A stretch of 64,000 bases of DNA, from positions 20,316,036 to 20,380,035 of the forward strand of contig CM055092.1 in assembly GCA_029204225.1 (NCBI GenBank), read 5' to 3'. The notes under the pieces were generated by a model, which saw only the letters and a program-made list of their open reading frames with translations, had not been told where the DNA came from and did not search any database. A program made the translations under genes and the position numbers. This DNA is from Diphasiastrum complanatum. Its lineage: Eukaryota; Streptophyta; Lycopodiopsida; Lycopodiales; Lycopodiaceae. Shown here in pieces: positions 4,092 through 59,921 of the stretch (position 1 is the first letter of the stretch; each line of letters begins with the position of its first letter).

Positions 4092-5535
4092 AGAAAAACT
4101 GATTTACAAGGTTTTTTGTCAATATTAGACGCAAATTCTGAGGAAGATATGCCAGTTGACTCTAATGAAGAAGACGGGTCTTCCACTTTATCAACTGAAA
4201 ACGAGTGTTGATAATATGTCAAATTCTGAATTGAGAGGCATCAGTAAAAATTCCTTAGAAAATGTACTTTAAAAAAAAGAATGTGCAAATATAATTTAAG
4301 TTGTTTTGTATTTCAATGGGATTTCGAGTTTCAATAATCATTTGTTCTCTTAAATTATAATTTCATTTGTAACTATGATGGTTTTATGAAGTTTGCAACA
4401 AAAAACTTGTAGTTCTTTATTTAAAATATGCATTTTTTGGTTTTTTTTTAAAAACAAAATCTAGAGATTTATTAAAAAAATCTATAATTTTGGCCTAAAA
4501 CTAGGACCATTTAAAAACACCAAAAAGGATTACTCTTTTTCAGGTCAAAGTCCCAAAACAAATGTCATCGTGTTCTCTATTGAAGTACCAGAAGATGAGC
4601 CCACTAGTTCATCTTTCTTAGATTTAGCTACCATCCCTTTATTTGTTCCAATGGATGTAGATGAAGATGATGTTGATATAGGTGTTGAAGCTGAAGTTGA
4701 AATGGCATCTGAATATTAGCAGACCACCTATCGCTCAATAATTTTGTCCGATTTTAAATCTTCAAAAACTCCTTTTAGGGAGAAAAGTTTACTGGATCTT
4801 CATGTATATATTATAGATAATGATCATTATATATTGTTCAATGATATTGAAAATGTTTTTGATTTGAGAGAAGATGAAATCTTATCAATTTTTTTCTAAT
4901 ATTATTGATTATGATTATGATGATTTTAAGTGCGAGATTGATATTGTGATGGATGGCAATTGGAAATCTGATAAGGAAACATTGGATGCCACGATGTGAC
5001 AAAGCTTATTCTGAAACCTTGCGAATTGAAGAAATTTTTTTGGAGTTTTAGAAAAGGTATCCACCAAGGATTCATCATGAACTAGTGAGAACTGAAGAGT
5101 CTAGTGGTGGCCACGACATTACAACAAAAAATATGATCAGTTTCGATGAAGATGACCTTGTAAGTTATTGTTTTATGACCTAATACCTTAATTATTGTTC
5201 TATTTTTTGTAATTGTGATTTTCATTTTTTAATCTAAATATATCTCTTATTGCACTCATTTACAAAATACCATTGAAGCAGATTCCTTTGCTATAAGACG
5301 TGGAGGTCTTCGCAAAGGATCGACAACTATTGGGGGTACAAGGAGACATCCCTTGCCCACTATTTGAAATTTTTTGTAAATAACAAAATTTGTATATATC
5401 ATACGAGTTATAGTCCATTCGTCACAACCATTATAATGGCAATTAGAGCATTGTCTGTTTGCTTAGGAGGCCACAATTATGCCAAAGGAACATTCAAATT
5501 TGTCTTTGTTCAGAAGGATCTTGACTTTGGTGGTT
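4092..5535 (+). other. Unassigned degraded region between transposase relic and E1
   Basis: There is no long frame. Short acidic readings occur at about 4560-4718 (with PEDEPTSSS and a run of Asp/Val) and at about 4890-4995. Near 5405-5535 an open reading including ALSVCLGGHNYAKG runs up to the E1 breakpoint. These may be further exons or debris of the preceding relic. The right edge at about 5536 is where homology to the family-B gag begins on the minus strand. Confidence 0.4.
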
Positions 5536-6263
5536 GATGGAGATGCCTTTGGGGGTCCTTCTTGATCCTCAAGCTTTGTAGACTTCTTGAATGTTGATCC
5601 TTTGCCTTTGGACTTGCCTTTGCCTTTGGTGAAGAGAGCTTGGTCATCTCCACCTTGGATGGAAAGCCTATCCATCCTCTCTTGCATTTGGCTCCTTCTT
5701 GATTCCTCGGCCATGAGTGTGCCTTGGAGTTCTTCAAGTATGGGTACCTTACCCATAATTGCATATTCCTGAACCAAATTGTCAAATTCAAAGCTTAGTC
5801 CATTCAATATGAGTTGAACAAGCTCTTCATCCTTGATAGGGTCACCTATAAAGGCTAGCTCTTTGTTCAATTCCTTTACTCTTAGGACAAAAGTATGTGC
5901 ACTCTCTCCTTTCTTTTGATAGCTTCTATAGATTTGATTCTTCAAAGCCAACATTCTAGTTTGGTTCTTGGATTCATAGACCTTTTTCAAAGTCTCCCAA
6001 GCATCTTGAGCTGAAGTGCAATCTCCTACCTCTCTTAAGAGTTCATTTGCAACATTCATTTTTATGCAATGTAGTGCAACATTGCACCTCTTGATGTATT
6101 TGGCTTTTTCTTAAGGATGAATAGGTTCACCCTCCTTACCATTTACAATTTCCATCAGATCTTGCATGATCATGATAGATTCCATTCTAACTTTCCATAT
6201 GGAATAGTTAGTTTTGTTGAGCCTTTCATTAGTATCCAAAAGATATGCATTTATAGATGCCAT
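5536..6263 (-). pseudogene. Copia gag N-terminal part (E1)
   Basis: Gag forms the nucleocapsid shell that packages element RNA. The start is placed at the ATG at 6261-6263, because the same start heads E2 at 9535. A CAA-to-TAA change gives a stop at 6111-6113; the frame then stays open from 6059 to beyond the breakpoint. The plant copia gag core is visible (ELLREVGDC, then DAWETLKKVYES, LRVKELNKEL and VQLILNGL), followed by a Lys/Gly-rich stretch. The zinc knuckle is absent because homology ends at about 5536, and the last roughly 20 codons of the open frame are foreign. It is broken by both the stop and the truncation. Confidence 0.8.
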
Positions 6264-7062
6264 CTAGTCTCCTAATCAAGGACTTGACACAAATGAAGGT
6301 TACTTCTATTGATTTGATTGAAGGTCTACCTTATCCCACTTCTTAGGGACCTGAAAAGATCAGTAATAGACTTCCTATAAAGATCTAAGAATGATCTCTA
6401 ACAAAATCAAATCATAGAATACTAGAAACAATGCACTTGCTTGATTGAAGTAGACAATACTAGTAGAATTGCCCCTCTTTCTATAAAGAACATTAAAGCT
6501 TCCAAATGATCTGATCAAGAGTGAATTTCAGCAACCTAATATACTTCCAAAATCACTTGTAAAAGATCTAAATGGAACTTAATGAGGATGGAACACAATC
6601 TACTATCCAATCACAAGCAAAAAATGATCAAAATTGATGAAAAATTGATCTAGTTTGGTGCATAAGTCAAGCAATGGTTGGACTGAACCTAAATCACTTT
6701 AGGAGGTGCCTACTACACCTTAGAAAAGCCTTGAAGAGTCCCCAAAACTCTGATCTTCCCTCTCCTTGAATGCTAGAAAGCCTCCTCTATGAAATCACCT
6801 CCAAAACTCGCTTAGAAATCAATGCTTGGAGCAAGCAAAGCTTGCTATCTTGGTAATGTGAATTGAATTCAACTTTGCCTCTGGTTTTAGACACCCAAAA
6901 ACCTGCAAATGAAGTCACACAACACCAATCTCCAATGTATTTGACTCACTTTGAGTTCTAGAATCAATACTAGATGCTAAGATCCAATCTACACAAGATT
7001 TAGATCAAAAATTGTGATCAAATTGAATGAAAACCAAGGATTTAGCTCATTTCAACCTTTAG

Positions 7063-7074
7063 GCTCTGATACCA
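7063..7074 (-). other. Primer-binding site of E1
   Basis: The minus strand reads TGGTATCAGAGC directly after the LTR end, matching initiator Met tRNA. Confidence 0.85.
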
Positions 7075-7756
7075 TGTAAAAATTACAACAAATAAGGATC
7101 CTAAAACACTTGAAATGATGAGGGAAACAATAGATTATGATTTCATAAGATTAGCACAAGTTGAACCATCAAAATCCATCAAAAATCTATGCTTGAACCT
7201 CACTAAATGGCCCAAATCCTTGAAGAAGGCTTCACACGTGTGAAAGTACGGCCTCCCACAATCTGAGTACTGTACACCAGACCTACATTCAATCCTATAA
7301 TCATTAGTAATCACAAGTACTCAAACAATTATGAACATAGAGAGCAATTGCACCATTATGAGAAAAAAAACATGGAATTGCTTGATTGATTTTGGTGAGA
7401 TATCATCACCTATATATACATGATCCATCACGGTTTTGGGCAGGTATGAGTAGTCCTAAACCTATCCCTAATGCTAATTTTGGTGGATCTTTCATCCCTA
7501 CCAAGTTAGGGTTGGAATCTTGGAGATCCCTCAACAATGCAAAAATTACCAAAAATAGCTCCTATTTTTTCTCCCTTGTATCTAAGCATAATTTGGACTC
7601 ATTCCAAAGGTTCTAACACTTAGGTCTACTTGAGAATATCCTTATGAATGGAATCCTATGCTATTTGGCACGTGTGACAAGCCACATCATGACCATCTAA
7701 CTATTTACAAGTGATATGACCAAAACTAGTCAAGCTAGAATTGTGAATTTTTAACT
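7075..7756 (-). repeat. LTR, family B (5' LTR of E1)
   Basis: This is the full 682-bp family length, identical in length to the LTRs at 12463-13144 and 19900-20581. On the plus strand it starts TGTAAAAATTACA and ends TTTTTAAC plus one base; the terminal A expected at 7756 is T. It holds the 14-bp palindrome TTCACACGTGTGAA at 7231-7244. A spurious 76-codon frame inside (7386-7616) recurs in every copy of this LTR. Confidence 0.88.
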
Positions 7757-7764
7757 TAGTACAT

Positions 7765-7824
7765 GTTCTAACACTTAGGATTCCATTCATAAGGATGTTC
7801 TCAAGTAGACCTAAGTGTTAGAAC
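7765..7824. repeat. 15-bp inverted repeat at the broken 5' end of E2
   Basis: Positions 7765-7779 (GTTCTAACACTTAGG) are a perfect reverse complement of 7810-7824, with a 30-bp loop. The right arm is native family-B LTR sequence. The left arm is not found at this place in intact LTRs and replaces the first roughly 110 bp of the LTR. This is what self-primed snap-back synthesis at a cDNA end would leave. Confidence 0.75.
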
Positions 7825-8337
7825 CTTTGGAATGAGTCCAAATTAGGCTTAGATACGAGGGAGAAAAAATAGGAGCTATTTTTGGTAATTTTTGCATTGT
7901 TGAGGGATCTCCAAGATTCCAACCCTAACTTGGTAGGGATGAAAGATCCACCAAAATTAGCATTAGGGATAGGATTAGGGCTACTCATACCTGCCCAAAA
8001 CCGTGATGGATCATGTATATATAGGTGATGATATCTCACCAAAATCTATCAAGCAATCTCATGATTTTTCTCTCATAATGGTGCAATTGCTCTCTATGTT
8101 CATAATTGTTTGAGTACTTGTGATTACTAATGATTATAGGATTGAATGTAGGTCTGGTGTACAGTACTCAGACTGTGGGAGGCCGTACTTTCACACGTGT
8201 GAAGCCTTCTTCAAGGATTTGGGCCATTTAGTGAGGTTCAAGCATAGATTTTTGATGGATTTTGATGGTTCAACTTGTGCTAATCTTATGAAATCATAAT
8301 CTATTGTTTCCCTCATCATTTCAAGTGTTTTAGGATC
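7776..8337 (+). repeat. Truncated family-B 5' LTR of E2
   Basis: Homologous to the interior and 3' part of the 682-bp LTR, beginning at TAGGATTCC and stopping at TTTTAGGATC, about 25 bp short of the normal end. The TATA-like TATATATAGG lies at about 8014. The G-box palindrome TTCACACGTGTGAA is at 8190-8203. It lies head to head with the E1 LTR, 19 bp away. Confidence 0.85.
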
Positions 8338-8345
8338 ATTTCAAG

Positions 8346-8723
8346 TGCGTCCCTGCGGTGGCGTACGAGGTCCAATTTTCCTACATGGTATCAGAGCCCA
8401 GGACTTGCTACAACCGTATTCGGTTGCCTCAACCGGTGCTTGCTTAAGGGGGAGTGTTGGAGGTGTAAGTTGCGCACCAGTCAAAGAGGCTCCAGAATGA
8501 AGCAGAGGGCACGGAATGGTCTCATAAGTAAATGGGAAGATGAGAACGGGCAAGTCAAATAAGGAAATTGGAAGACTTGTGATTGTCCCCTGGTACCATC
8601 CCTTTTGGGGGTAAGGGGGAGACCACAATGCGATGGGTGGCTAGGCGACTGGGGTGGGACACCCAATATGCGGCCCACACGCGTGCGTCCCTGCGATGGC
8701 GTGCGAGGTCCAATTTTCCTACA
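8346..8723 (+). mobile_element. TRIM-like miniature LTR element inserted into E2's LTR
   Basis: The order is partial LTR (8346-8385, ending TTTTCCTACA), PBS (8386-8397, TGGTATCAGAGC), 48 bp, polypurine tract AAGGGGGAG (8446-8454), then a full 269-bp LTR (8455-8723, TGTTGGAGG...TTTTCCTACA). The whole internal region is only 69 bp and codes for nothing, which fits terminal-repeat retrotransposons in miniature. The 40-bp LTR fragment matches the end of the full LTR apart from a few base changes. It is more GC-rich than its surroundings. The element was not simply inserted: its LTR abuts the PBS of E2. Confidence 0.8.
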
Positions 8724-8735
8724 TGGTATCAGAGC
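8724..8735 (+). other. Primer-binding site of E2
   Basis: TGGTATCAGAGC directly follows the TRIM LTR, and the sequence after it (TAAAGGCTGAAATGAGC) is the family-B leader seen in E1. The TRIM/family-B join therefore lies at or beside the PBS. Confidence 0.85.
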
Positions 8736-9534
8736 CTAAAGGCTGAAATGAGCTAAATCCTTGGTTTTCATTCAATTTGATCACAATTTTTGATCTAAAT
8801 CTTGTGTAGATTGGATCTTAGCATCTAGTATTGATTCTAGAACTCAAAGTGAGTCAAATACATTGGAGATTGGTGTTGTGTGACCTCATTTGCAGGTGTT
8901 TAGGTGTCTAAAACCAGAGGCAAAGTTGAATTCAATTCACATTACCAAGATAGCAAGTTTTGCTTGCTCCAAGCATTGATTTCTAAGCAAGTTTTGGAGG
9001 TGATTTCATAGAGGAGGCTTTCTAGCATTCAAGGAGAGGGAAGATCAGAGTTTTGGGGACTCTTCAAGGATGATCTAAGGTGTAGTAGACACCTCCTAAA
9101 GTGATTTAGGTTCAATCCAACCATTGCTTGACTTATGCACCAAATTAGATCAATTTTTCATCAATTTTGATCATTTTTTGCTTGTGATTGGATAGTAGAT
9201 TGTGTTGCATCCTCATTAAGTTCCATTTAGATCTTTTACAAGTGATTTTGGAAGTATATTAGGTTGCTGAAATTCACTCTTGATCAGATCATTTGGAAGC
9301 TTTAATGTTCTTTATAGAAAGAGGGGCAATTCTACTAGTATTGTCTACTTCAATCAAGCAAGTGCATTGTTTCTAGTATTCTATGATTTGATTTTGTTAG
9401 AGATCATTCTTAGATCTTTATAGGAAGTCTATTACTGATCTTTTCAGGTCCCTAAGAAGTGGGATAAGGTAGACCTTCAATCAAATCAATAGAAGTAACC
9501 TTCATTTGTGTCAAGTCCTTGATTAGGAGACTAG

Positions 9535-12448
9535 ATGGCATCTATAAATGCATATCTTTTGGATACTAATGAAAGGCTCAACAAAACTAACTATTCCATA
9601 TGGAAAGTTAAAATGGAATCCATCATGATCATGCAAGATCTGATGGAAATTGTAAATGGTAAGGAGGGTGAACCTATTCATCCTCAAGAAAAAGCCAAAT
9701 ACATCAAGAGGTGCAATGTTGCACTACATTGCATAAAAATGAATGTTGCAAATGAACTCTTAAGAGAGGTAGGAGATTGCACTTCAGCTCAAGATGCTTG
9801 GGAGACTTTGCTTATGGCACAAAAGACTTGGACATGTCAACTCGGGTTCCATGGAGGCTATGATCAAGGAGGAGTATGCTTTAGGCCTACCAAGGTCTAT
9901 TGGGAAGGAAGACAAGGTTTGTGAAGCTTGTGCCTTATCCAAGGCACATAAGAAGGTGTTTCCTAACTCCATCACAAAGTAATCTCATCCTCTTGAACTC
10001 ATACACTCGGATGTGCACATTGCTAGCACCAAATCTAATGGAGGTTCATCCATGTTTTTAACCTTCATTGATGACTACTCAAGATATTGTTGGGTGTTCT
10101 TACTTTCCTTCAAGTCTCAAGTATTTGATACTTTTGTAAACTTCAAGTTGTTTGTGGAAAAGCATCATAATCATAGCATCAAGATTCTTAGAAGTGACAA
10201 TGGTGGAGAATTCATCTCCAATGAGTTCAAGGCCTTTTGTGAGGAGGAAGGGATCAAGAAAGAGACTTCTTGTCCTTACACTCCTCAACAAAATGGAGTT
10301 GCTGAAAGAAGGAATAGAACATTATGTGAATGTTCTAAGGCTTTAAGATTAGATGCTTGTTTGCCCAAATCCTTTTGGGGTGAGTCTCTTGTATGTGCAA
10401 ACTACGTGATGAATAGGGTGTCTTGCAAAGCAATTGAAGGCAAAACTCCTTATGAGATGTTGTATGGAAAGAAACCCAATCTTAATCACTTGAAAGTTTT
10501 TGGGTGTATATGTTATGTGCATGTGCCATTGGAAACAAGAACCAAGGAGGATCCATCTTCCACAAGAGGGATCATGCTTGGATATGCAAGCTCAAGCAAG
10601 GGCTACAAAGTCTATCTCCCATTCTTGAACAAATTTGTTGTCTCAAGGGATGTCATCTTTGATGAAAATCATATGCATATGCTTGAAGAAGGCTCAAGTG
10701 CTCCAACAATCAAGAAGAAGATGGCCGAGGAGCAAGATCTTGGTTTTGAGGAGGAGCTCATGGAGGAGCAAGCACCAAACCCACCTATCACACCAAGGAG
10801 ATATTCAAGGGCAAAAGTGGAGCCATCAAGGCTCACATATCAAGGCAAAGGACAGCAAGTTGAGGGTATCTCATCCACTTATTATGATTTATCTAGTTTT
10901 GAAGAACCATCTAATGTTGAAGATGCATTGAACTCCAAAGAATGGTATAAAGCTATGTTGGATGAGTATGATGCCTTGATTGAGAATGAAACTTGGTTGC
11001 TTGTTGAGAGACCTCAAAGGAATGTAATAGGATGCAAGTGGGTCTTCAAGCTTAAGTTGAATGCAAATGGTAGTGTTAACAAACATAAAGCAAGATTAGT
11101 TGCAAAAGGTTATGCTCAAGAGAGAGGGATAGACTATGAGGAAACTTTTGCACCCGTGGCCAAGATGGTCACAATAAGGCTAATCATTACACTTGCATCA
11201 CATTTTGGATGGATTCTATGTCAAATGGATGTCTCTAATGCTTTCTTGAATGGTTTTTGGAAAGAGGATATCTATATGGAGCAGCCACAAAGGTTCATCA
11301 AGCATGGAATGGAGAACAAAGTATGCCATCTCCAAAGAAGCATCTATGGCTTGAAGCAAGCCTCGAGATCTTGGAATTCAAGACTACATTGCTATCTTAT
11401 TTCAGTTTCTTTTGTTCAAAGTGAATATGATCCTACTCTTTACATTAAGTTTGATGATGTTGGTATTGTAGTTTTACTCATTTATGTAGATGACATCATC
11501 ATTAGTGGAAATAGTGTTGATGGTATTGAAAAAATCAAGATAGATCTATCCTTAGAGTTCAAGATGGTAGATCTAGGGTGTCTTCACTTCATCTTAGGCA
11601 TAGAAGTACTTAGAGGGTTTGATTTTATCTTTATAAGTCAAGTAAACTATGCTCAAAGTCTTTTGAAGAAGTTTAAGATGGAAGTATGCAAAAGTGTTGA
11701 CACACCAATGGAGCAAGATGTAAAAGTGCCAAATGAAGATGATGAAAGATCCTTCATGGACATCACTTTGTTTAGGCAACTTATAGGTTCCTTAATGTGG
11801 ATCACTATAACTAGACCAGATCTTAGCTTTAGTGTATGTAGGTTGAGCCAATCCATGCAAAAGCCATTGAATATCCATTGGAAAAAGGCTAAGAGGATTC
11901 TAAGATACATCTCGGGTACATTGGATTTTGGGATTCTATATAGAGGAGATGTGATTAACCTTCATGCATTTAGTGATTCAAATTTTGCAGGGGAAAGAGG
12001 GATAGGAAATCAACAAGTTCCTATTCAACTTTCATAGGAGAAGGTGTGGTTTCATGGCTTTCAAAAAAAGCAAGAAACTATATCTCTATCTTCAACCGAG
12101 GCCGAGTACAAAGCTTTGACAACCACTACAAAGGAGGTACTTTGGATCAAGAGATTATTGGTGGAACTAAAGATCATGGATTCAGAGGAGGCACCAATCA
12201 TCTACAATGACAATATATCAGCCCAACACCTTGCATATAACCCAATCTTCCATGCAAGATCTAAGCACATTGAGATATGCCATCACTTTGTTAGAGAAAT
12301 GGTGCAAGCCAAGGAGATTACTTTGGAGCATGTTCCAAGAAATGAATGTGTAGCTGATCTACTTACTAAACCACTTCAAAAGACACCTTTTATGAAGTTC
12401 AGATCATCACTTGGAGTGATTAGTAAAGCAATGATTGAACCAAGCTAG
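9535..12448 (+). pseudogene. Copia gag-pol polyprotein of E2, deleted and frameshifted
   Basis: The ATG at 9535 opens the gag N-terminus (about 90 codons, through DAWETL). At about 9809 it is joined to the gag-pre-integrase zinc region (HKRLGHVN), so late gag, zinc knuckle and protease are gone and the frame shifts. A TAA at 9980-9982 stops the next frame. From 10013 integrase (SDNGGEF, NGVAERRN), RT (YVDD near 11490) and RNase H follow. A one-base loss near 11995 moves the reading to 12044-12448, which carries LSSTEAEY and LTKPL; an extra A in a run near 12065 accompanies it. E3 is the intact comparison. Without protease and a nucleocapsid it is non-autonomous. Confidence 0.88.
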
Positions 12449-12462
12449 ATAGTGAGGAGGAG

Positions 12463-13144
12463 TGTTAAAAATTCACAATTCTAGCTTGACTAGTTTTGGT
12501 CATATGACTTGTAAATAGTTAGATGGTCATGATGTGGCTTGTCACATGTGGCAAATAGCATAGGATTCCATTCATAAGGATGTTCTCAAGTAGACCTAAG
12601 TGTTAGAACCTTTGGAATGAGTCCAAATTATGCTTAGATACAAGGGAGAAAAAATAGGAGCTATTTTTGGTAGTTTTTGCATTGTTGGAGGATCTCCAAG
12701 ATTCCAACCCTAACTTGGTAGGGATGAAAGATCCACCAAAATTAGCATTAGGGATAGGTTTAGGGCTACTCATACCTGCCCAAAACCGTGATGGATCATG
12801 TATATATAGGTGATGATATCTCACCAAAATCAATCAAGCAATTTCATGTTTTTTCTCTCATAATGGTGCAATTGCTCTCTATGTTCATAATTGTTTGAGT
12901 ACTTGTGATTACTAATGATTATAGGATTGAATGTAGGTCTGGTGTACAGTACTAAGACTGTGGGAGGCCGTACTTTCACACGTGTGAAGCCTTCTTCAAG
13001 GATTTGGGCCATTTAGTGAGGTTTAAGCATAGATTTTTGATGGATTTTGATGGTTCAACTTGTGCTAATCTTATGAAGTCATAATCTATTGTTTCCCTCA
13101 TCATTTCAAGTGTTTTAGGATCCTTATTTGCTGTAATTTTTACA
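12463..13144 (+). repeat. LTR, family B (3' LTR of E2)
   Basis: A complete 682-bp LTR, TGTTAAAAATTC...GTAATTTTTACA, preceded by the polypurine tract GAGGAGGAG. The palindrome TTCACACGTGTGAA is at 12975-12988. It ends cleanly at foreign sequence at 13145. Unlike the 5' LTR it has the native family-B 3' end, so the two LTRs of E2 do not match. Confidence 0.9.
12801..12810 (+). promoter_or_regulatory. TATA-like promoter element in E2 3' LTR
   Basis: TATATATAGG stands about 340 bp into the LTR and is present in every family-B copy (also on the minus strand in E1). Its position suits an LTR promoter with transcription starting about 30 bp downstream, but the start is inferred. Confidence 0.5.
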
Positions 13145-13164
13145 TCCCTGATGCAATTCAGATA
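13145..13164 (-). repeat. 20-bp flank copy, inverted relative to 20582-20601
   Basis: Directly after the E2 3' LTR, these 20 bases are the exact reverse complement of the 20 bases directly after the E3 3' LTR. On the minus strand they extend an open reading ending YLNCIRD, which resumes after the E3 LTR. Confidence 0.9.
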
Positions 13165-14200
13165 TGGCAAATTGACTTGACTTACCCGGAATAGGCAGTT
13201 GAAGTATATCTCTTCGATGACAAACCTGATACACTGCTCCACAACTAAATTTGACTTGATCAAAAATGACTTACCAACTGCAAAACCACAAAATCATCAC
13301 ACTTACTACTCTCCAAGAGTCTCCAAAGAGTGATTACTGACCCATTCTTCATCCTCTGCATGTTCCACACACAGCTTGTCCAATGCAAGTCCGCTATCTT
13401 GTCCAATGGCTTCCAACTGGCACCACCTTGCATTTCCATCACTCGTGACTGCCAATATGTGTGTACCTCCAAGCTAGCCCATATTTCCCTCCAAATGAGA
13501 AATTTCCAAGCTACAGATGCGTGTGTCAATGCAGCTATCACCTGACTCGACAATGCCACTATCGATCATACCTATGAGAGCATTCCCCCAAAATGCCACC
13601 TGACATTGGTCGGTTCTAACCTCAATAGTTGAACCTGATCACAAAAACTTTTCACTTGTAATCGGCATACCATGCCTACCTCTCACCTGTGATTGCTTGC
13701 CCTCTCAAAATTGTCACCAATGATGAGTAGTCACGCCGCCAAACTACACTTCCACCGCCAAAACTAGCTTTCTCCACGCAATTCCACTTCCATTCGCTCC
13801 CATACCACATTTACCACTTCCAAACACCCTGTTACCTTGTCAGGAGTAAGTAATAATGATTCAAAAGTGATTATGCCTCAATGTACCGCCCTGTAGCAGG
13901 TTTCACTAGCCAAAAATTTCTCCAAGTTTGGCCCTACGGTACCCAAATAGCGAATGTAGCCCATCACTAGGTCACCTGCACTCCGCTCGATAAAATGGTG
14001 ACAAAAACACCCTGAAATGCATTTTTCCCTACTCTGTGATGTCGCTCTATCCGCTGGCTCTGTCCGATGGCCAAAGAAGGTGCCTTCTGGCCAAAGATAG
14101 GCCTCTCCAAAGATTGCCCTTGCAAAATTGAACTGGAACTTCATTTAGAAGTTTCTTAATGAAGAAATGGGATTTCTGCCCTTCGGGTCCCTTCAGGCCC
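13165..14200 (-). other. Foreign sequence interrupted by the E2/E3 complex, left part
   Basis: Less AT-rich than the retroelements. Minus-strand open frames at 13145-13263, 13260-13559 and 13878-14144 have no domain that I recognise. The frame reading toward the E2 LTR (through SQVNLPYLNCIRD) continues in phase at 20582-20815 on the plus strand, so 13145-13263 and 20582-20815 were once contiguous. Whether the frame is a real gene or an older repeat is unknown. Confidence 0.45.
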
Positions 14201-14434
14201 TTTCTTTTGAAGATTTTTAGTGAAGTTGCATGGCCAAATGCACTTCATACCCTTCGTACCCTTTCAACCAGCATCTAATGGTCCATGACAAATCCACAGT
14301 CTTAAAGCACTCCCAGAGAAATCGATTACGACCGTTGATCTATGGCATGGTTGATCTGACGTTCCAAATGCCTCCTGCACCTTGATTCGCTACCCTACAG
14401 ACACAATCCGCTTCAAGACGCTAGGCGCCTCTCC

Positions 14435-16464
14435 TTGCTGGCTGCGCGCGAGCTGCTGTCTGAGCTCCTCTTCTCTCTCATTTACCAAAAGTTGAACAAC
14501 TATGGCAAAAGGGTTTTGGGCCGCACTTACAGTTTGATTACGCTAGATCTATTCAATTTAACTGATTGTAGTTTGAAACATTTACATATTATAGCTATCA
14601 ACAATGGCAATGTTTCATTTGCATGTTGCACTTCCTATGGAATGTACTCTAATTATTAAGAAAAAGTTGAAAGCTATAGAGAATGTTGCTGAATTGTTAG
14701 AGAAATGAGAATAAATAATCATAAGAATATAGATTTATTGGTGGATGGATCAATTTATTCTAGAGATCCAACTACCAATTTGTGTCTAGATTTCAAGTCC
14801 GTAACTTATTTTCTCATATTTGTATGCGAAAGAAATAGCAGATTACTTGGATATTGTCAAAGGTTGCGCAATATTGGAATGCATAGTGTATCTTGTCTTA
14901 ATCAGCAATTATAGTTTGCTAATCAACAATTACAATGTGCAAATCAACAATTGTTTCATTATGTGCAGCAGTGTTGAAAACAATGCACTCAAGCCTATTA
15001 TATCAAAGTTGAATACTGTAGTCACTAGTCTTCGAGGTTCAAACGAAGATATATTAGAATCCATGGAGAAGTTGCGATCTGATAGTTTAAAATCTGTTGT
15101 TGATATACAAGTTTTAAAAAAGACAATGATGAAAAGGAAAAGAAAGAGAGTACCGATGAAGAATATTAATGACTTATCCACACATAGTGGCAATCAAAAA
15201 AAAAGATTCGAGCATTTAAGTATGTTTTCTTATAAACTATTTATTTGATTTGTATTTGTCATTTAAGTTTGATTTGCAATTGAAAACATGCATTATCAAT
15301 TTGTTAAACATAATTTGAGTTTTATATGTTTGTTGCAGATCATGTTTGGTGGCAAAGAACTATTCAATAGATCATTCATGCATTGGAGAATCTCTAAGTC
15401 ATGTTTTACCGAGAAAGTCAGCAAAGGCAATGATGAAAATGTTTGGTTTAAAAAAATAAAATAAAAAATTGTAGAGATTGTTTTGAATAAGGTTCAAACT
15501 TACTTGGATGCAAATGTGATACAATGTGCATGTGATAATTCTGGAATCAGCAAAAATGCTTATTTTACTTTTTTTAGAATAGTTAAAGAAGCCTTTTCTC
15601 AAGTGATAGTAAAACAAACTTATCTTCCTCGTCCATATTGGGTAAGAGTAGCAAGAAATTATTATAATGACAGAATGTTCAAAGTAGTTGGCCAACCATT
15701 TCATATAACTAATTATACAAATCAGAATGTGGTGAGCTCAATTACAAAGATTGCAATAATATTTTTCTTGATATTGAAAATGTTCTAAAATACATTATTC
15801 GATTGTATAAACTAGACGAACATCAAGTAAATGGAAATATTTTTATTGTAATGAAATTAGATGAATATGAAATCATCAAAGGTCAAAAATTGGAATGGGT
15901 GAGTGTCACTTTGACGAACAAAATTTTAAATACCGATGATCAAATATTTAGTGTTCAATCGAAAAATCACATATGGTGGTTGGCTACATTCTAGGTATAT
16001 TTTGGTGTTATCAGAAGATATGAGGACTTTGCAAGATCATTGCACCACATTTGTAAAATCTATACGAGATTATTGGGGAGAAGATCACGTTACACATTAC
16101 ATGATACTGATCTATTTCATTATATGGTATCTCATTCATGATTATATTTATTTCTACTGATGTTACCAATTTTAACGAATTTCAACTCTTGTTTGTAGCA
16201 AAAAAAATTTCATCATGCAACTTATTTTGCAAAGGAATATGTGAGCTTAAGTATCAAGGCATGGAAAAATCACATTGGCAAGCAAGAGGCACATCTCATA
16301 GAGCTACAAATCATGGTGGACATAATTCAAAAAATAAATATTTAGTACAACTATTCGAGTGGTTTTACAAAGGAGCACAATTTAAATATCAAGCTAAAAA
16401 CTCGCCAAACATTATGATCTTTAAAAAAGCATTCAAATTCATCACAAAAGAGAGATCCTCTTGA
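14435..16464 (+). pseudogene. Unrecognised intron-bearing gene or TE gene, decayed
   Basis: Linked plus-strand readings form a plausible multi-exon gene. One exon runs from about 14820 to 15221 (acidic then Lys/Arg-rich, KRKRKRVPMKN) and stops at a donor-like GTATGT. After an acceptor at about 15339 (TTGTTGCAG), a long reading with one stop near 15460 includes YLDANVIQCACDN, RPYWVRVARNYYNDRMF and, after frame changes, KLDEYEIIKGQKLEWVSV. A reading with FVKSIRDYWGEDH (about 16040-16100) is followed by an acceptor TTTGTAG near 16200 and KKFHHATYFAKEYVSLSIK. I do not recognise the family; the layout suggests a transposon-encoded protein. Stops and frameshifts indicate decay. Confidence 0.4.
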
Positions 16465-16678
16465 TACAATGGAAAACATGTATATATATGTATAATATAT
16501 TTTAATTTCAATTTTCATCATCTCCAAGTTTGAGATGCATAGTATTGTCATGAAGGAACAATCTCCTTTCATTTTGATTTAAAAACTGTATATATATTTT
16601 TTTGCTCATGTCTATATATCCCGAATAAAAAGCCATTGAAGATGATCTTTTTGTGGTATCTTCAGGGACAAATCAAAG

Positions 16679-19600
16679 GTGAAGTGCTACTATTGTAGCA
16701 AGATGGGGCATTATGCCTCGGAATGCTTCAAGAGGAAGCAAGATCAAAGCCAAGCCAACATGAGCAAAGAGGAGGAGGAGAGTTCACATGAGGACTCTCT
16801 CATGATGTCCATATTTTCTTCAACAAGCTTCAAAGGAGAAGATCCTTGGTGGATTGACTCGGGTGCTAGTTCACACATGACTAGTAAAAGGGAGTTTTTC
16901 TCTTCTCTCTTATCTTATGATGGACCTATAAAGTCTATCTATACATCAAATGATGAAGCTTGTAAGATTGAAGGAGTTGGTATCATTCCCCTTTGCTTAG
17001 GATCTTCCAAAAAGATCAACATAGAAGGTGTTTTGTACATTCCTACAATAACAAAGAATCTACTAAGTGTTGGCCAAATGGTAGCCAATGGTTTCAATGT
17101 TGATTTTGCTTCAAATGAATGTTTCATCAAGAAGAAGGGTAAGATAGTGGCTAAGGGCACTAGACTTGGCAAACTTTATAAGTTGGATGCATTTGTGGAT
17201 ACTAATGTTTTCATGTTGGCCGAGAAGAGCAAGATATCTACCTTTACTTTATGGCACAAAAGACTTGGACATGTCAACTCGGGTTCCATGGAGGCTATGA
17301 TCAAGGAGGAGTATGCTTTAGGCCTACCAAGGTCTATTGGGAAAGAAGACAAGGTTTGTGAAGCTTGTGCCTTATCCATGGCACATAAGAAGGTGTTTCC
17401 TAACTCCATCACAAAGTCATCTCATCCTCTTGAACTCATACACTCGGATGTGCACATTGCTAGCACCAAATCTAATGGAGGTTCATCCATGTTTTTAACC
17501 TTCATTGATGACTACTCAAGATATTGTTGGGTGTTCTTACTTTCCTTCAAGTCTCAAGTATTTGATACTTTTGTAAAGTTCAAGTTGTTTGTGGAAAAGC
17601 ATCATAATCATAGCATCAGGATTCTTAGAAGTGACAATGGTGGAGAATTCATCTCCAATGAGTTCAAGGCCTTTTGTGAGGAGGAAGGGATCAAGAAAGA
17701 GACTTCTTGTCCTTACACTCCTCAACAAAATGGAGTTGCTGAAAGAAGGAATAGAACATTATGTGAATGTTCTAAGGCTTTAAGATTAGATGCTTGTTTG
17801 CCCAAATCCTTTTGGGGTGAGTCTCTTGTATGTGCAAACTACTTGATGAATAGGGTGTCTTGCAAAGCAATTGAAGGCAAAACTCCTTATGAGATGTTGT
17901 ATGGAAAGAAACCCAATCTTAATCACTTGAAAGTTTTTGGGTGTATATGTTATGTGCATGTGCCATTGGAAACAAGAACCAAGGAGGATCCATCTTCCAC
18001 AAGAGGGATCATGCTTGGATATGCAAGCTCAAGCAAGGGCTACAAAGTCTATCTCCCATTCTTGAACAAATTTGTTGTCTCAAGGGATGTCATCTTTGAT
18101 GAAAATCATATGCATATGCTTGAAGAAGGCTCAAGTGCTCCAACAATCAAGAAGAAGATGGCCGAGGAGCAAGATCTTGGTTTTGAGGAGGAGCTCATGG
18201 AGGAGCAAGCACCAAACCCACCTATCACACCAAGGAGATATTCAAGGGCAAAAGTGGAGCCATCAAGGCTCACATATCAAGGCAAAGGACAGCAAGTTGA
18301 GGGTATCTCATCCACTTATTATGATTTATCTAGTTTTGAAGAACCATCTAATGTTGAAGATGCATTGAACTCCAAAGAATGGTATAAAGCTATGTTGGAT
18401 GAGTATGATGCCTTGATTGAGAATGAAACTTGGTTGCTTGTTGAGAGACCTCAAAGGAATGTAATAGGATGCAAGTGGGTCTTCAAGCTTAAGTTGAATG
18501 CAAATGGTAGTGTTAACAAACATAAAGCAAGATTAGTTGCAAAAGGTTATGCTCAAGAGAGAGGGATAGACTATGAGGAAACTTTTGCACCCGTGGCCAA
18601 GATGGTCACAATAAGGCTAATCATTACACTTGCATCACATTTTGGATGGATTCTATGTCAAATGGATGTCTCTAATGCTTTCTTGAATGGTTTTTTGGAA
18701 GAGGATATCTATATGGGGCAGCCACAAGGGTTCATCAAGCATGGAATGGAGAACAAAGTATGCCATCTCCAAAGAAGCATCTATGGCTTGAAGCAAGCCT
18801 CGAGATCTTGGAATTCAAAACTACATTGCTATCTTATTTCACTTTCTTTTGTTCAAAGTGAATATGATCCCACTCTTTACATTAAGTTTGATGATGTTGG
18901 TATTGTACTTTTACTCATTTATGTAGATGACATCATCATTAGTGGGAATAGTGTTGATGGTATTGAAAAAATCAAGATAGATCTATCCTTAGAGTTCAAG
19001 ATGGTAGATCTAGGGTGTCTTCACTTCATCTTAGGAATAGAAGTACTTAGAGGGTCTGATTTTATCTTTATAAGTCAAGTAAACTATGCTCAAAGTCTTT
19101 TGAAGAAGTTTAAGATGGAAGTATGCAAAAGTGTTGACACACCAATGGAGCAAGATGTAAAAGTGCCAAATGAAGATGATGAAAGATCCTTCATGGACAT
19201 CACTTTGTTTAGGCAACTTATAGGTTCCTTAATGTGGATCACTATAACTAGACCAGATCTAAGCTTTAGTGTATGTAGGTTGAGCCAATCCATGCAAAAG
19301 CCATTGAATATCCATTGGAAAAAGACTAAGAGGATTTTAAGATACATCTCGGGTACATTGGATTTTGGGATTCTATATAGAGGAGATGTGATTAACCTTC
19401 ATGCATTTAGTGATTCAGATTTTGCAGGGGACAAGAGGGATAGGAAATCAACAAGTGCCTATTCAACTTTCATAGGAGAAGGTGTGGTTTCATGGCTTTC
19501 AAAAAAGCATGAAACTATATCTCTATCTTCAACCGAGGCCGAGTACAAAGCTTTGACAACCACTACAAAGGAGGTACTTTGGATCAAGAGATTATTGGTG

Positions 19601-19885
19601 GAACTAAAGATCATGGATTCAGAGGAGACACCAATCATCTACAATGACAATATATCAGCCCAACACCTTGCATCTAACCCAATCTTCCATGCAAGATCTA
19701 AGCACATTGAGATATGCCATCACTTTGTGAGACAAATGGTGCAAGCCAAGGAGATTGCTTTGGAGCATGTTCCAAGCAATGAATGTGTAGCTGATCTACT
19801 TACTAAACCACTTCAAAAGACACCTTTTATGAAGTTCAGATCATCACTTGGAGTGATTAGTAAAGCAATGATTGAACCAAGCTAG
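16679..19885 (+). CDS. Copia gag-pol polyprotein, uninterrupted over 1068 codons (5'-truncated)
   Basis: The polyprotein supplies nucleocapsid, protease, integrase, reverse transcriptase and RNase H for replication in cytoplasmic particles and nuclear insertion. Visible in order: zinc knuckle CX2CX4HX4C (residues 3-16); aspartic protease DSG (Asp60); integrase HHCC (His193, His198, Cys227, Cys230); integrase catalytic Asp257, Asp319 (in SDNGGEF) and Glu355; RT from about residue 560 with Asp663 and YVDD (748-751); and RNase H with SDSDFAGD (about 911), STEAEY (about 951) and LTKPL near the end. This domain order (integrase before RT) is diagnostic of Ty1/copia. The first Met is simply the first in the surviving frame; true gag starts some 190 codons earlier and now lies inverted at 5536-6263. 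With no upstream LTR promoter, normal expression is unlikely. Confidence 0.93.
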   Translation: MKCYYCSKMGHYASECFKRKQDQSQANMSKEEEESSHEDSLMMSIFSSTSFKGEDPWWIDSGASSHMTSKREFFSSLLSYDGPIKSIYTSNDEACKIEGVGIIPLCLGSSKKINIEGVLYIPTITKNLLSVGQMVANGFNVDFASNECFIKKKGKIVAKGTRLGKLYKLDAFVDTNVFMLAEKSKISTFTLWHKRLGHVNSGSMEAMIKEEYALGLPRSIGKEDKVCEACALSMAHKKVFPNSITKSSHPLELIHSDVHIASTKSNGGSSMFLTFIDDYSRYCWVFLLSFKSQVFDTFVKFKLFVEKHHNHSIRILRSDNGGEFISNEFKAFCEEEGIKKETSCPYTPQQNGVAERRNRTLCECSKALRLDACLPKSFWGESLVCANYLMNRVSCKAIEGKTPYEMLYGKKPNLNHLKVFGCICYVHVPLETRTKEDPSSTRGIMLGYASSSKGYKVYLPFLNKFVVSRDVIFDENHMHMLEEGSSAPTIKKKMAEEQDLGFEEELMEEQAPNPPITPRRYSRAKVEPSRLTYQGKGQQVEGISSTYYDLSSFEEPSNVEDALNSKEWYKAMLDEYDALIENETWLLVERPQRNVIGCKWVFKLKLNANGSVNKHKARLVAKGYAQERGIDYEETFAPVAKMVTIRLIITLASHFGWILCQMDVSNAFLNGFLEEDIYMGQPQGFIKHGMENKVCHLQRSIYGLKQASRSWNSKLHCYLISLSFVQSEYDPTLYIKFDDVGIVLLLIYVDDIIISGNSVDGIEKIKIDLSLEFKMVDLGCLHFILGIEVLRGSDFIFISQVNYAQSLLKKFKMEVCKSVDTPMEQDVKVPNEDDERSFMDITLFRQLIGSLMWITITRPDLSFSVCRLSQSMQKPLNIHWKKTKRILRYISGTLDFGILYRGDVINLHAFSDSDFAGDKRDRKSTSAYSTFIGEGVVSWLSKKHETISLSSTEAEYKALTTTTKEVLWIKRLLVELKIMDSEETPIIYNDNISAQHLASNPIFHARSKHIEICHHFVRQMVQAKEIALEHVPSNECVADLLTKPLQKTPFMKFRSSLGVISKAMIEPS

Positions 19886-19899
19886 ATAGTGAGGAGGAG

Positions 19900-20581
19900 T
19901 GTTAAAAATTCACAATTCTAGCTTGACTAGTTTTGGTCATATCACTTGTAAATAGTTAGATGGTCATGATGTGGCTTGTCACACGTGCCAAATAGCATAG
20001 GATTCCATTCATAAGGATATTCTCAAGTAGACCTAAGTGTTAGAACCTTTGGAATGAGTCCAAATTATGCTTAGATACAAGGGAGAAAAAATAGGAGCTA
20101 TTTTTGGTAATTTTTGCATTGTTGAGGGATCTCCAAGATTCCAACCCTAACTTGGTAGGGATGAAAGATCCACCAAAATTAGCATTAGGGATAGGTTTAG
20201 GGCTACTCATACCTGCCCAAAACCGTGATGGATCATGTATATATAGGTGATGATATCTCACCAAAATCAATCAAGCAATTCCATGTTTTTTTTCTCATAA
20301 TGGTGCAATTGCTCTCTATGTTCATAATTGTTTGAGTACTTGTGATTACTAATGATTATAGGATTGAATGTAGGTCTGGTGTACAGTACTCAGATTGTGG
20401 GAGGCCGTACTTTCACACGTGTGAAGCCTTCTTCAAGGATTTGGGCCATTTAGTGAGGTTCAAGCATAGATTTTTGATGGATTTTGATGGTTCAACTTGT
20501 GCTAATCTTATGAAATCATAATCTATTGTTTCCCTCATCATTTCAAGTGTTTTAGGATCCTTATTTGCTGTAATGTTTACA
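19900..20581 (+). repeat. LTR, family B (3' LTR of E3)
   Basis: A complete 682-bp LTR, TGTTAAAAATTC...GTAATGTTTACA, following the polypurine tract. TTCACACGTGTGAA lies at 20412-20425. It is very similar to the E2 3' LTR and the E1 LTR. Confidence 0.92.
20238..20247 (+). promoter_or_regulatory. TATA-like element in E3 3' LTR
   Basis: TATATATAGG at the same place as in the E2 LTR. In a 3' LTR it could drive readout into flanking DNA at 20582 onward; this is inferred. Confidence 0.45.
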
Positions 20582-20601
20582 TATCTGAATTGCATCAGGG
20601 A
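20582..20601 (+). repeat. 20-bp flank copy (TATCTGAATTGCATCAGGGA)
   Basis: Directly follows the E3 LTR and is exactly reverse-complementary to 13145-13164. It is four times longer than the usual 5-bp copia target duplication. Confidence 0.9.
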
Positions 20602-25420: not shown

Positions 25421-25446
25421 CTTACTAGTGACTTCTACAAACAAGA

Positions 25447-25795
25447 AATAGATTTGATTGACTTGAAACTCACAAAGGTCTCACACTTGCAGTGTTTCAC
25501 TCAAATTTGATTTCTAATCCAACAAATGGACTTATCATCACAGTTCTATCACTCCCTCACAAAGCTGGAATGAAGATAAGATGAAGTGAAAACTACTTTC
25601 AAACAAATCTTGCCAAGAAATGGATTTGATTGTCTCTAGAAACTCACTAAGGTCTCTCTCTTGTAGTTTTTCACTCAAATTAGATTTCTAATCCAACAAA
25701 TGGACTTATAATCTCAGTTCTAGCACTCCCTCACAAGGTTGGAATGAAGATAAGATGATGTGAAATCTACTTACAATCAAATCTTGCCAAATTTG
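25447..25795 (-). repeat. Tandem duplication in the E4 leader, period about 174 bp
   Basis: GATTTCTAATCCAACAAATG starts at 25509 and again at 25683, with about 170 bp of similar sequence around each. It lies between the gag start and the PBS, so the untranslated leader was lengthened by one unit. Confidence 0.75.
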
Positions 25796-26225: not shown

Positions 26226-26922
26226 TGTGAAAGTACTGTACTTTAGGACCATAAATGGATCTACAAAAGATCCACAAGAGTGATTGGATGCTTGCTTAAC
26301 AATCTATCAAAAAACTAGACACAAAAAAGTTGATCTAGATTGGCAGTTTGATAAACAACAAGCATTAGCAATAAAAGCATTGATCAACATTGAAATCCGA
26401 GACCACACGTGTGTAATACAGGCTGTAGTACGGCCTTCAACCTGAGAAACAAGTAGAAATTGATTTGGTTTCATTTGGATCACAAAAACTCAATGTACAT
26501 AGTGAACTAGCTTGAGATTGCCAATGAGCTCCAAAAATTTTCTATCTTCTCACTATGGAGAGAGGGAATACATAGCAAATTCGACTTCCTTCTTGAAGTT
26601 AGTGGATTTCCAGCATGTAATAAGGAAGTTAACTCACTCCTTGACCTAAAATGAAACCCTAGTCTATTTCCTAGAGTTATGCTTGGTAGGTAGCTAGTTG
26701 GTCAAATTTTCACCTTAAACTTAGGTGTAGGTCCTATAAAGTAGGGATGACCACCAAATAGACATGACCAACTCTATTGACTTGACCTAACCTACATTAG
26801 GATGGGTTTATCATGTGGCATCATGGCCTCACATGTGTGGGACCCACTTGTGTACACAATTTACACTATTCTACATGGTTTTTGATCAAGCTAGATTTGC
26901 CAATTTTTGGCAATTCTTCACA
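26226..26922 (-). repeat. LTR, family D (5' LTR of E4)
   Basis: A 697-bp segment, plus strand TGTGAAAGTACTG...GCAATTCTTCACA, next to the PBS of E4. CACACGTGTG is at 26404-26413. It is similar, in inverted orientation, to 27105-27783. E4's 3' LTR was not found. Confidence 0.85.
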
Positions 26923-27104
26923 TCTTGGAGGAGATCAAGATCAAAGAAGCTCTATCTTGGATATGGCGATAGATCATGTCATCATCTTTAGGAGCTCATT
27001 ATTCATCTTCTAAACCTGAATATGATTCATTTATGATGTTAAGATCAGGTCTTAGAATTGTATATAGATACATTATTGTTTCCAAGGCTAGATTTGAGGA
27101 GGAG
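26923..27104 (+). mobile_element. Last codons of a second family-D element (E5)
   Basis: A plus-strand reading with MLRSGLRI and VSKARFEEE resembles the last residues of copia RNase H, and GAGGAGGAG just before 27105 is a polypurine tract. Only about 180 bp of E5 remain between its 3' LTR and the E4 LTR. Confidence 0.6.
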
Positions 27105-27783
27105 TGTGAAAAATAGCCTACTTTGGCAAATCTAGCCATGTAGAACTTTGTAAATATTGTGTATAATTGGGTTCCACACATGGAAGGCCAAGATGCCACG
27201 TGGAAACCCACTCCTAATGTATGTTAGGGCAAGTCAAGAGAGTTGGTCATGTCTATTTGGTGGTCATCCCTACTTTATAGGACCTACACCTAAGTTTAAG
27301 GTGAAAATTTGACCAACTAGCTACCTACCAAGCATAACTCTAGGATCTAGGCTAGGTTTCATTTTAGGGCAATGAGTTAACTTCCTTATTACATGCTGAA
27401 AATCCACCTAACTTCAAGAAGGAATTCGAATTTGCTATGTATTCCAAGCTCATAGTGAGAAGATAGAAACTTTTTGGAGCTCATTGGCAATCTCAAGCTA
27501 CTTCACTATGTACATTGAGTTTTTGTGATCCAAATGCAAACAAATCAATTTCTACTTGTTTCTCAGCTTGAAGTCCGTACTACAGCCTGTAGTACACACG
27601 TGTGGGCTTAGATTTCAATGTTGATCAATGGTTTTGATTGTTAATGCTTGTTGTTTATCAAATTGCCAATCTAGATCAACTTTTTTGTGTCTAGTTTTTT
27701 GATAGATTGTTAAGCAGGCATCCAATCACTCTTGTGGATATTTTGTAGATCCATTTATGTTCCACAAGTACAATACTTTCACA
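27105..27783 (+). repeat. LTR, family D (3' LTR of E5)
   Basis: A 679-bp segment, TGTGAAAAATAGCC...AATACTTTCACA, following a polypurine tract. CACACGTGTG is at 27595-27604. It forms a large imperfect inverted repeat with 26226-26922 across a 182-bp spacer. Confidence 0.85.
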
Positions 27784-32011: not shown

Positions 32012-32078
32012 GACTATTGAGAGAAAGATATGAAGTTGTGAAAAGAACTTGGAAAGATATCAAATGTGAAAAATGAAA

Positions 32079-32220
<142 letters not shown>

Positions 32221-32318
32221 TGTGAGAGAGTGAAAAAGAAAAGCAAACTTTTAAATGTGTGAAAAATGAAAAGGAGGTGTGAAAGAGAAAGAGAGATTGG
32301 AAATTGGAGAGTGAAAGA

Positions 32319-32459
<141 letters not shown>

Positions 32460-32659
32460 TGGAGAGATTGAGAAAAGAGTGGAGAGGAGTGAAAAGAAAT
32501 GAAAGATTGAGAGTGAGAGATTGAGAGAGAGAGAGAAATGAGAGATTGAAAGCTTGAGAGTGAGAGCTTGAGAGTGAGAGCTTGAGAGCCTCAAGAAATC
32601 CACAAGAAAGCATGGAGAAATAATGAATGAGGGCCTTTATATTCATTTTCTAGATTTCA

Positions 32660-56240: not shown

Positions 56241-57247
56241 AGGTGAATTATCAATGTTGATGAATGAAAGTTTTGTTCGACAAGTGCCATACAGTTCTCA
56301 CTCTCTATATCGTTCATTTATTTTCTTGTTCCTCTTCATACCTTTTGTGTGATTGATTTTTGCATGAGAAATAGCTACTGCACGAGAGTCTTCTGTAGAG
56401 TATCTCAAAAACACATTTTCATTCATCTATCCATCTTCAAATCACCTTTACAGAGTTTAGAATCTTTGAGCATACAACAACTTTCAGAAATACAAGTCAT
56501 TTCAGAGTTGATTCTTGTCTTTCATAGTGATATTATCTTCGAGTCAACTACAACAAGATCAAAACAATTTTAGTTAAAGTTTGTTCAATCTTTTGTCTAG
56601 TCGCATGTTCAACGTGTTTCAACTACTCCAAACGCCAATCCAACCTTGTGCATGCAAGTTACAGATAACAACATCCCCACCAATAGATTTTTTTGGGGGG
56701 GGAGAGAGTAGATTTGCAGGCATCCACTAGGAGCAGTTACATTGCCAACAACAACATTAGTAGATTGATAGCCAAGGTCACAAAACCAAAGATGATAACG
56801 ACAAGGCTAAGAAAGAAGATGGGCAATCCAAAGAGACTCAATCAAAGGAAGTATTCTAGTCATGACGAAGATCCTTCAGAAGATGGAAGCACAAGCATTG
56901 GGAATTCAGTCTCCTTCTTCACCTAGCCTCTTGTCATACGTTTGCATCCATTCTCATGCCTATCGCCCTCACCATCTACTATTGTCACCACTGCCACCAC
57001 TCTTCCTTCCATTTCTCTATTTTCCATCAAATCACTATTCATATGAGAAATTTCCGATTTTTTTCAAATCCTGGTAGTCTTACCAAAGCGGCTAAAAGTT
57101 CATTGAAAGTGTCTTGCGGAGACCAACTACCACCTACATTGGTTGGTCACCTAGAAAAGAAGATCTAAGAAAGCATGCGAAGTAGCAAAAAAGAAATAAA
57201 GCAAAGAAGATGAGGAGGAAAGGGCGAAACTTAAGCAACAAATGATT
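56241..57247. other. No gene recognised
   Basis: Short plus-strand frames at 56349-56573, 56693-56926 and 56862-57168 show basic or low-complexity sequence without domains. Nothing here supports a gene. Confidence 0.4.
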
Positions 57248-58403: not shown

Positions 58404-58527
58404 TGTGAAAATTGTCAACATTTCCTAGCTAGTTTGAGGCCTAAATTGGCTAAAATTGTAAATAGTTTTGGTTCTGGAGTTTCACACGTGTGAACCAGGC
58501 CACAATGTTTTTATTTACTGTATTTTT
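58404..58527 (+). repeat. LTR-F, first 124 bp only
   Basis: Identical but for about one base to 59255-59378, including TTCACACGTGTGAA at 58481-58494. It correctly follows the E7 polypurine tract and then stops in an unrelated 727-bp segment. Confidence 0.9.
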
Positions 58528-59909: not shown

Positions 59910-59921
59910 TGGTATCAGAGC
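59910..59921 (+). other. Primer-binding site of E8
   Basis: TGGTATCAGAGC immediately after the LTR; initiator Met tRNA type. Confidence 0.9.

What the first reader, a model, noticed from the sequence alone, without database searches (positions are those of the whole stretch)
5536..16666. An ~11.1-kb inversion has split one copia element into two complementary halves
Seen: E1 (minus) holds LTR, leader and gag up to just before the zinc knuckle and stops at about 5536. E3 (plus) starts at about 16666 just before the zinc knuckle and runs intact to its 3' LTR. Neither overlaps the other. The 20 bp after the E3 LTR and after the E2 LTR are exact reverse complements, as expected if everything between was flipped. 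Inference: one inversion with a breakpoint inside gag explains all of this. It also predicts that sequence left of 5536 and sequence left of 16666 (reverse-complemented) were once neighbours.
Basis: partly seen in the sequence, partly recalled or inferred. Interest (0 to 1): 0.85.

Follow-up and report, generated by a model that had tools for sequence, protein, structure and literature searches.

The report
Inversion splits a head-to-head copia pair
A copia-type jumping element in what looks like plant DNA has been cut in two by an 11-kb inversion, and the flipped stretch suggests that the element entered the chromosome joined head-to-head with a second, damaged copy.

Summary
E1's gag most likely runs to 5498, not 5536, and E3 starts at 16667; both halves hold the word GACAAAT there, in the same gag frame. 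The exact edge rests on that word, because E2 is deleted there. E1's and E3's LTRs are the closest pair (3 differences in 682 bp, against about 2% to E2's LTRs). The 20 bp after the E2 3' LTR is the exact reverse complement of the 20 bp after the E3 3' LTR.

Copia normally duplicates 5 bp. I read it as two one-ended integrations 20 bp apart, or integration of a joined cDNA pair, then the inversion. E2 is itself a mosaic (TRIM-like insert, 1.07-kb deletion). Against joint entry: E2's LTRs look older.

No relative or own-genome sequence could be examined, so the empty sites rest on internal evidence. Ordinary in kind, unusual in detail.

The parts
5498..7755 (-). E1: 5' part of a copia element (5' LTR 7075-7755, PBS, leader, gag to the break)
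   Evidence: (Retrotran_gag_2, E 6.2e-22 on 5506-6059)
5498..5504 (-). 7-bp word at the left inversion break (GACAAAT on the - strand)
7756..7775 (.). 20-nt filler between the two 5' LTR ends; 11 nt match the E2 LTR as a snap-back (15-nt inverted repeat 7765-7779 / 7810-7824)
7776..13144 (+). E2: second, defective copy; 5' LTR lacks its first 98 nt, TRIM-like insert, gag-protease deletion at 9811/9812, full 3' LTR 12463-13144
8345..8723 (+). TRIM-like insert: 41-nt LTR tail, PBS 8386-8398, 47-nt middle, PPT-like 8446-8454, LTR-like 8455-8723, followed by E2's own PBS 8724-8736
   Evidence: 54-nt direct repeat 8345-8398 / 8683-8736 and reading by eye; the name TRIM is recalled
13145..13164 (+). 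20-bp flank after the E2 3' LTR, exact reverse complement of 20582-20601
13165..16666 (-). host DNA carried inside the inversion
   Evidence: of 6 ORFs from here sent to Pfam, none reached a curated cut-off
16667..20581 (+). E3: 3' part of the same element as E1 (zinc knuckle, protease region, IN, RT, RH, PPT, 3' LTR 19900-20581)
16667..16673 (+). 7-bp word at the right inversion break
20582..20601 (+). 20-bp flank after the E3 3' LTR, the partner of 13145-13164
5505..16666 (.). inverted segment, about 11.16 kb
   Evidence: inference from all of the above

Best explanation
Two steps. Step 1 (inferred): two copia cDNAs of one family, an almost complete one (E1+E3) and a defective mosaic one (E2), entered one host site in opposite orientations. 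Each was joined to the host by its 3' LTR end, 20 bp apart on opposite strands, and their free 5' ends were sealed to each other by error-prone end joining that left 20 nt of filler. Gap repair duplicated the 20 bp. Step 2 (well supported from the sequence, not seen in another genome): later an inversion of about 11.16 kb, with breaks in E1/E3's gag and in host DNA about 3.5 kb beyond the E2 end, flipped E2, the 5' part of E1/E3 and that host DNA. It used or produced a 7-bp GACAAAT word at both new junctions, as in microhomology-mediated joining or fill-in of a staggered break. The result is most likely inert: neither half can act as an element by itself.
For: Inversion: the halves tile to within about 40 bp by homology and share a 7-bp word in the same frame (88 of 20,000 random 80-bp stretches have it in a given frame); E1 and E3 LTRs are the closest pair, 3 differences in 682, and 18 of 19 gap-free variable LTR columns group them against E2; both LTRs fit one 682-bp length, E1 lacking only the first base; the 20-bp inverted match sits exactly at both 3' LTR ends; 500-bp G+C agrees better across the restored joins (differences 0.042 and 0.004) than in the other pairing (0.098 and 0.144). 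Against repeat-driven mis-assembly: no homology beyond the word around the two breaks (76 of 200 shuffles reach the best local score), and no N. Single composite insertion: the 20 bp becomes a direct repeat touching both 3' LTR ends; E1's 5' LTR is trimmed by one base, as for a free cDNA end; the filler has an 11-nt snap-back match to the E2 LTR (32 of 5000 shuffles match as well).
Against: No outside sequence showed either empty site: searches found nothing, in collections not expected to hold plants, and the genome search did not complete. The exact left edge rests on the 7-bp word; protein alignments put E1's end 4 or 13 residues beyond E3's start. E2's LTRs differ from each other more than E1's and E3's do: 14 of 566, or 12 of 563 after I dropped two columns at the TRIM junction, against 3 of 681 (Fisher p 0.008). 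Ordinary LTR dating would make E2 older, against simultaneous entry. I explain this by E2 being a mosaic: 2 of 12 private E2 LTR changes are C>T or G>A (my reading, the same two columns left out), few for methylated plant DNA (expectation recalled). But E2-E3 pol differences are neutral in kind (22 of 29 substitutions nonsynonymous against 78% expected, plus 2 indels), which also fits decay after insertion. The ORFs spanning the restored host joins (128 and 120 aa) are not informative: 12.7% of 1000 random joins reach 128 aa and 31.4% reach 100. In 250-bp bins the base composition beside the break is uneven (0.368 and 0.272). Another element at 57-64 kb also looks scrambled, which could mean a general assembly fault.
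Confidence: 0.7

Rival explanations
1. The inversion is real, but E2 and E1/E3 were separate ordinary insertions on two homologues, 20 bp apart. A later unequal exchange or end joining between the homologues put both on one chromosome, so the 20 bp is present twice without being a target duplication.
For: E2's greater LTR divergence fits an older E2; neutral divergence of E2 pol.
Against: The join would have to fall within one base of E1's LTR end by chance; it needs more steps.
Confidence: 0.2
2. E1 and E3 are two independent truncated insertions that happen to complement each other.
For: The three LTR types seen here differ by only about 2%, so LTR affinity alone does not prove identity; protein alignment alone does not fix the tiling better than about 40 bp.
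Against: The in-frame shared word, 18 of 19 LTR columns and the 20-bp inverted flank would all be coincidences.
Confidence: 0.04
3. The inverted stretch, or the whole arrangement, is an assembly error.
For: The region is rich in inverted repeats; a second copia at 57-64 kb is also in misordered, flipped pieces.
Against: The breaks share only 7 bp and lie outside the long inverted repeats; no N; non-homologous filler at 7756-7775.
Confidence: 0.06

Closest known systems
Complex LTR retrotransposon insertions by template switching (Sabot and Schulman 2007, PMC1950507; main text read in full)
   Same: Two copia elements inside one pair of flanking direct repeats, read as one integration of a chimeric cDNA
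   Different: There the elements are in tandem, share an LTR, have highly similar outer LTRs and a 5-bp duplication; here they are head-to-head, joined by filler, with outer LTRs about 2.2% apart and 20 bp
Recombinant complex elements formed by exchange after insertion (Devos et al. 2002, known to me only as described in PMC1950507)
   Same: Two elements fused by a later rearrangement
   Different: Those are said to lack flanking direct repeats; here there is a 20-bp one
Microhomology or staggered-break chromosomal inversions (recalled)
   Same: Short shared word at both junctions, no long homology
   Different: Nothing notable; small, and inside a transposon
TRIM / SMART miniature LTR elements (SMART: PMC3281118, listing and start of abstract only; TRIM recalled)
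   Same: Short LTR-like repeat, PBS and PPT-like stretch in a 379-nt insert
   Different: The 5' copy of the repeat is only a 41-nt tail, and the insert is fused at the PBS, so it looks like a chimera and not a normal insertion

Membership tests
Ty1/copia LTR retrotransposon (E1/E3 and E2) | copia gag, zinc knuckle, integrase ahead of reverse transcriptase | tested here: met
   (7 pieces sent): Retrotran_gag_2 in E1; zf-CCHC, Pol_BBD, rve, then RVT_2 in E3; rve and RVT_2 in E2; the E3 RH piece had no Pfam match
Ty1/copia LTR retrotransposon (E1/E3 and E2) | LTR TG...CA, tRNA-Met-type PBS, polypurine tract | tested here: met
   read by eye; E1's LTR lacks the first T; that the PBS is of the tRNA-Met type is recalled
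Ty1/copia LTR retrotransposon (E1/E3 and E2) | 5-bp target duplication | tested here: not met
   20 bp, and around the pair. Another copia in the window, itself scrambled, has AATCA beside both outer LTR ends, 5 bp (read by eye)
Inversion joined without long homology | both junctions without homology beyond a few bp | tested here: met
Inversion joined without long homology | un-inverted allele known | tested here: inconclusive
Template-switching complex insertion (PMC1950507) | direct orientation with a shared LTR, near-identical outer LTRs, 5-bp duplication | tested here: not met
TRIM | two short LTRs, PBS and PPT, no coding region | tested here: inconclusive
   one full LTR-like copy of 269 nt, one 41-nt tail, PBS and PPT-like stretch present; coding content was not searched separately

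The most novel reading that the evidence does not exclude
Copia integrase can make two one-ended insertions close together from two cDNAs, and the host seals the free 5' ends. This leaves head-to-head pairs whose outer ends are both 3' LTR ends, with an oversized (here 20-bp) duplication: a recognisable scar of half-site integration in plant genomes.
Probability: 0.4. Interest if true: 0.5.

Novelty: new variant of a known kind. Interest (0 to 1): 0.35.

Why it matters
Inversions inside transposons are common in kind, but few can be placed this closely from one sequence alone. The restored state shows a signature (two 3' LTR ends facing out, 20-bp direct repeats, filler between the 5' ends) that could be sought genome-wide to measure how often plant retrotransposons integrate one end at a time.

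Tried and rejected
An inversion between the two 20-bp repeats instead (flipping about 13165-20581) restores one host site but leaves a spare 20-bp copy between two LTR tails and leaves gag split; rejected by reasoning only. A spliced RNA as the source of E2's gag deletion: the missing part, as aligned, does not start GT or end AG, rejected. E1's extra 20 nt as a longer true LTR start: both 3' LTRs start at TGTTAAAAATTC directly after the PPT, so filler is preferred. A DNA transposon inserted in gag with a 7-bp duplication: no terminal repeats or LTR ends seen at 5497 or 16666 by eye. A host gene crossing the joins: 10 flank ORFs, a choice from those listed, gave 2 weak Pfam matches (E 0.018 and 0.062), both below the curated cut-off. 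Spanning ORFs were not better than random joins. Looking for relatives: with six short peptide patterns from E3 residues 1-200, 6 stretches in viral contigs and 127 in genome contigs matched a pattern and none was confirmed as a relative (close relatives only, and collections not expected to hold plants). The insertion-site pattern has no exact match in viral contigs. The joined host sites have no match crossing the join elsewhere in the window. Literature: ten searches, listings only, except PMC1950507, whose main text I read. Searches gave 0 papers; one search listed 10 of 843. I saw no title or abstract start describing a head-to-head pair of this kind in those listings, which is a weak statement.
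Full report
Setting. The window looks like plant nuclear DNA rich in copia elements; the organism is unknown, and 'plant' is my inference. Three stretches belong to one copia family: E1 (5498-7755, minus), E2 (7776-13144, plus) and E3 (16667-20581, plus). Self-comparison shows E1 against E2 at 98.4% over 1.1 kb, E2 against E3 at 98.6% over 3.3 kb, and the E1 LTR against the E3 LTR at 99.56% over 682 bp.

The halves. E1's gag frame stays open past 5536 and at 5498-5504 holds, as its reverse complement, the word GACAAAT with which E3 begins at 16667, in the same gag frame. I place the break there. The word occurs 13 times on the plus and 10 times on the minus strand of the window; of 20,000 random 80-bp stretches, 248 hold it and 88 hold it in one given frame. 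Homology alone is less sharp: against the gag at 61082, E1 residues 1-180 of 187 align to 69-247 and E3 starts at 244; against the gag at 25444 (minus), E1 aligns to 77-260 and E3 starts at 248. That literal overlap of 4 and 13 residues lies in a lysine-rich linker. E2, the only other copy of the family seen here, is deleted at this place, so the edge cannot be checked inside the family. Pfam finds copia gag in E1, the zinc knuckle and Pol_BBD at the start of E3, then integrase and reverse transcriptase. E1's gag also has one in-frame stop upstream of 6059, absent from E2.

Same element? The E1 and E3 LTRs differ at 3 of 682 positions. The differently cut alignment gives 4 of 682, which I put down to where I cut the pieces. 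E1 or E3 against either E2 LTR gives 97.65-97.88%. Of 19 gap-free variable columns, 18 group E1 with E3 and 1 sets E1 alone. The E1 LTR is 681 bp, lacking only the first base of the 682-bp LTR seen at E2's and E3's 3' ends. One element split in two is much the simplest reading.

The 20-bp flank. The E2 3' LTR ends at 13144 and the E3 3' LTR at 20581, both in ACA. The next 20 bp at each place are exact reverse complements. After undoing the inversion on paper (host flanks only were joined in scripts), the order is: left host, reversed 13165-16666, 20 bp, E2 reversed, E1/E3 forward, 20 bp, right host. So the pair is enclosed by a 20-bp direct repeat, with a 3' LTR end at each outer border. The polarity is the one expected when 3' ends of cDNA are joined to staggered target strands (retroviral-type integration, recalled), but the stagger for copia is normally 5 bp (recalled, and so stated in PMC1950507); a second, scrambled copia in this window has AATCA beside both outer LTR ends (by eye).

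The 5' ends. Between the E1 LTR (trimmed by one base) and the E2 5' LTR (first 98 nt missing) lie 20 nt. Eleven of them match the E2 LTR, and with neighbouring bases they form a 15-nt inverted repeat with a copy 30 nt away, as left by snap-back synthesis in end joining (recalled). Of 5000 shuffles of the filler, 32 match an LTR as well, so this is modest support.

E2 is a mosaic. Between its 5' LTR and its PBS lies a TRIM-like stretch, 8345-8723, made visible by a 54-nt direct repeat ending in the PBS. A 13-nt repeat (8315 / 8335) sits at the entry point. Its gag-protease region has a deletion of about 1.07 kb without splice signals. These look like errors of reverse transcription (inference).

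The inversion. The inverted part is about 5505-16666. Around the two breaks there is no homology beyond the word: 76 of 200 shuffles reach the best local score. That argues against recombination between the long inverted repeats and against an assembler flip between them. The word is either microhomology that was already present in the host or a filled-in stagger; I cannot separate the two. Host base composition agrees with the restored order: over 500 bp the G+C differs by 0.042 and 0.004 across the two restored joins and by 0.098 and 0.144 in the other pairing. In 250-bp bins it is uneven next to the break (0.368 and 0.272), and no test of significance was made. Open frames across the restored host joins (128 and 120 aa) are not informative: 12.7% of 1000 random joins reach 128 aa.

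Doubts. E2's two LTRs differ more than E1's and E3's: 14 of 566, or 12 of 563 after I dropped two columns at the TRIM junction, against 3 of 681 (p 0.008). By LTR dating this makes E2 older and speaks against joint entry. The three LTR types are about equally far apart (97.5-97.9%), and only 2 of 12 private E2 LTR changes are C>T or G>A (my reading), which fits a mosaic of different cDNAs. But E2's pol differences look neutral (22 of 29 substitutions nonsynonymous against 78% expected), which fits decay too. No relative was found in viral contigs or genome contigs, which are not expected to hold plants, and the own genome could not be reached (nine busy answers). The restored adjacencies are therefore inferred, not observed.

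Literature. The nearest published thing I read is the template-switching complex of Sabot and Schulman (PMC1950507, main text): two copia elements within one 5-bp duplication, but in tandem with a shared LTR. The present pair differs in orientation, joint and duplication length.

Verdict. The inversion is supported (about 0.85 by itself). The joint head-to-head insertion is the best reading of the state before it (about 0.6-0.7).

Noticed in passing
57243-63742: A second copia seems scrambled too: its 5' LTR, gag and part of pol are at 59255-63742 (+), a 3' pol piece plus LTR positions 1-124 at 57777-58527 (+), and most of the rest of that LTR reversed at 57248-57775. The LTR pieces are 99.2% and 99.4% identical to the 59255 LTR, and AATCA lies beside both outer LTR ends (in inverted orientation), as for one insertion broken up by flips.
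   Followed up: partly
63764-64000: A minus-strand reverse-transcriptase fragment of another copia directly follows the broken end of the element above.
   Followed up: no
8345-8736: TRIM-like insert fused at the PBS of E2: possible trace of a TRIM and a copia RNA being reverse transcribed together.
   Followed up: partly
9811-9812: E2 lacks about 1.07 kb from gag to protease; junction with short shared bases, no splice signals.
   Followed up: yes
26226-27783: Large fold-back: arms of about 700 bp, 89% alike, 182 bp apart.
   Followed up: no
25442-25790: Tandem duplication (177-bp match, 89%, 174-bp spacing) just upstream of a minus-strand copia gag.
   Followed up: no
32034-32588: Long simple repeat read as a Ser-Leu frame.
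   Followed up: no
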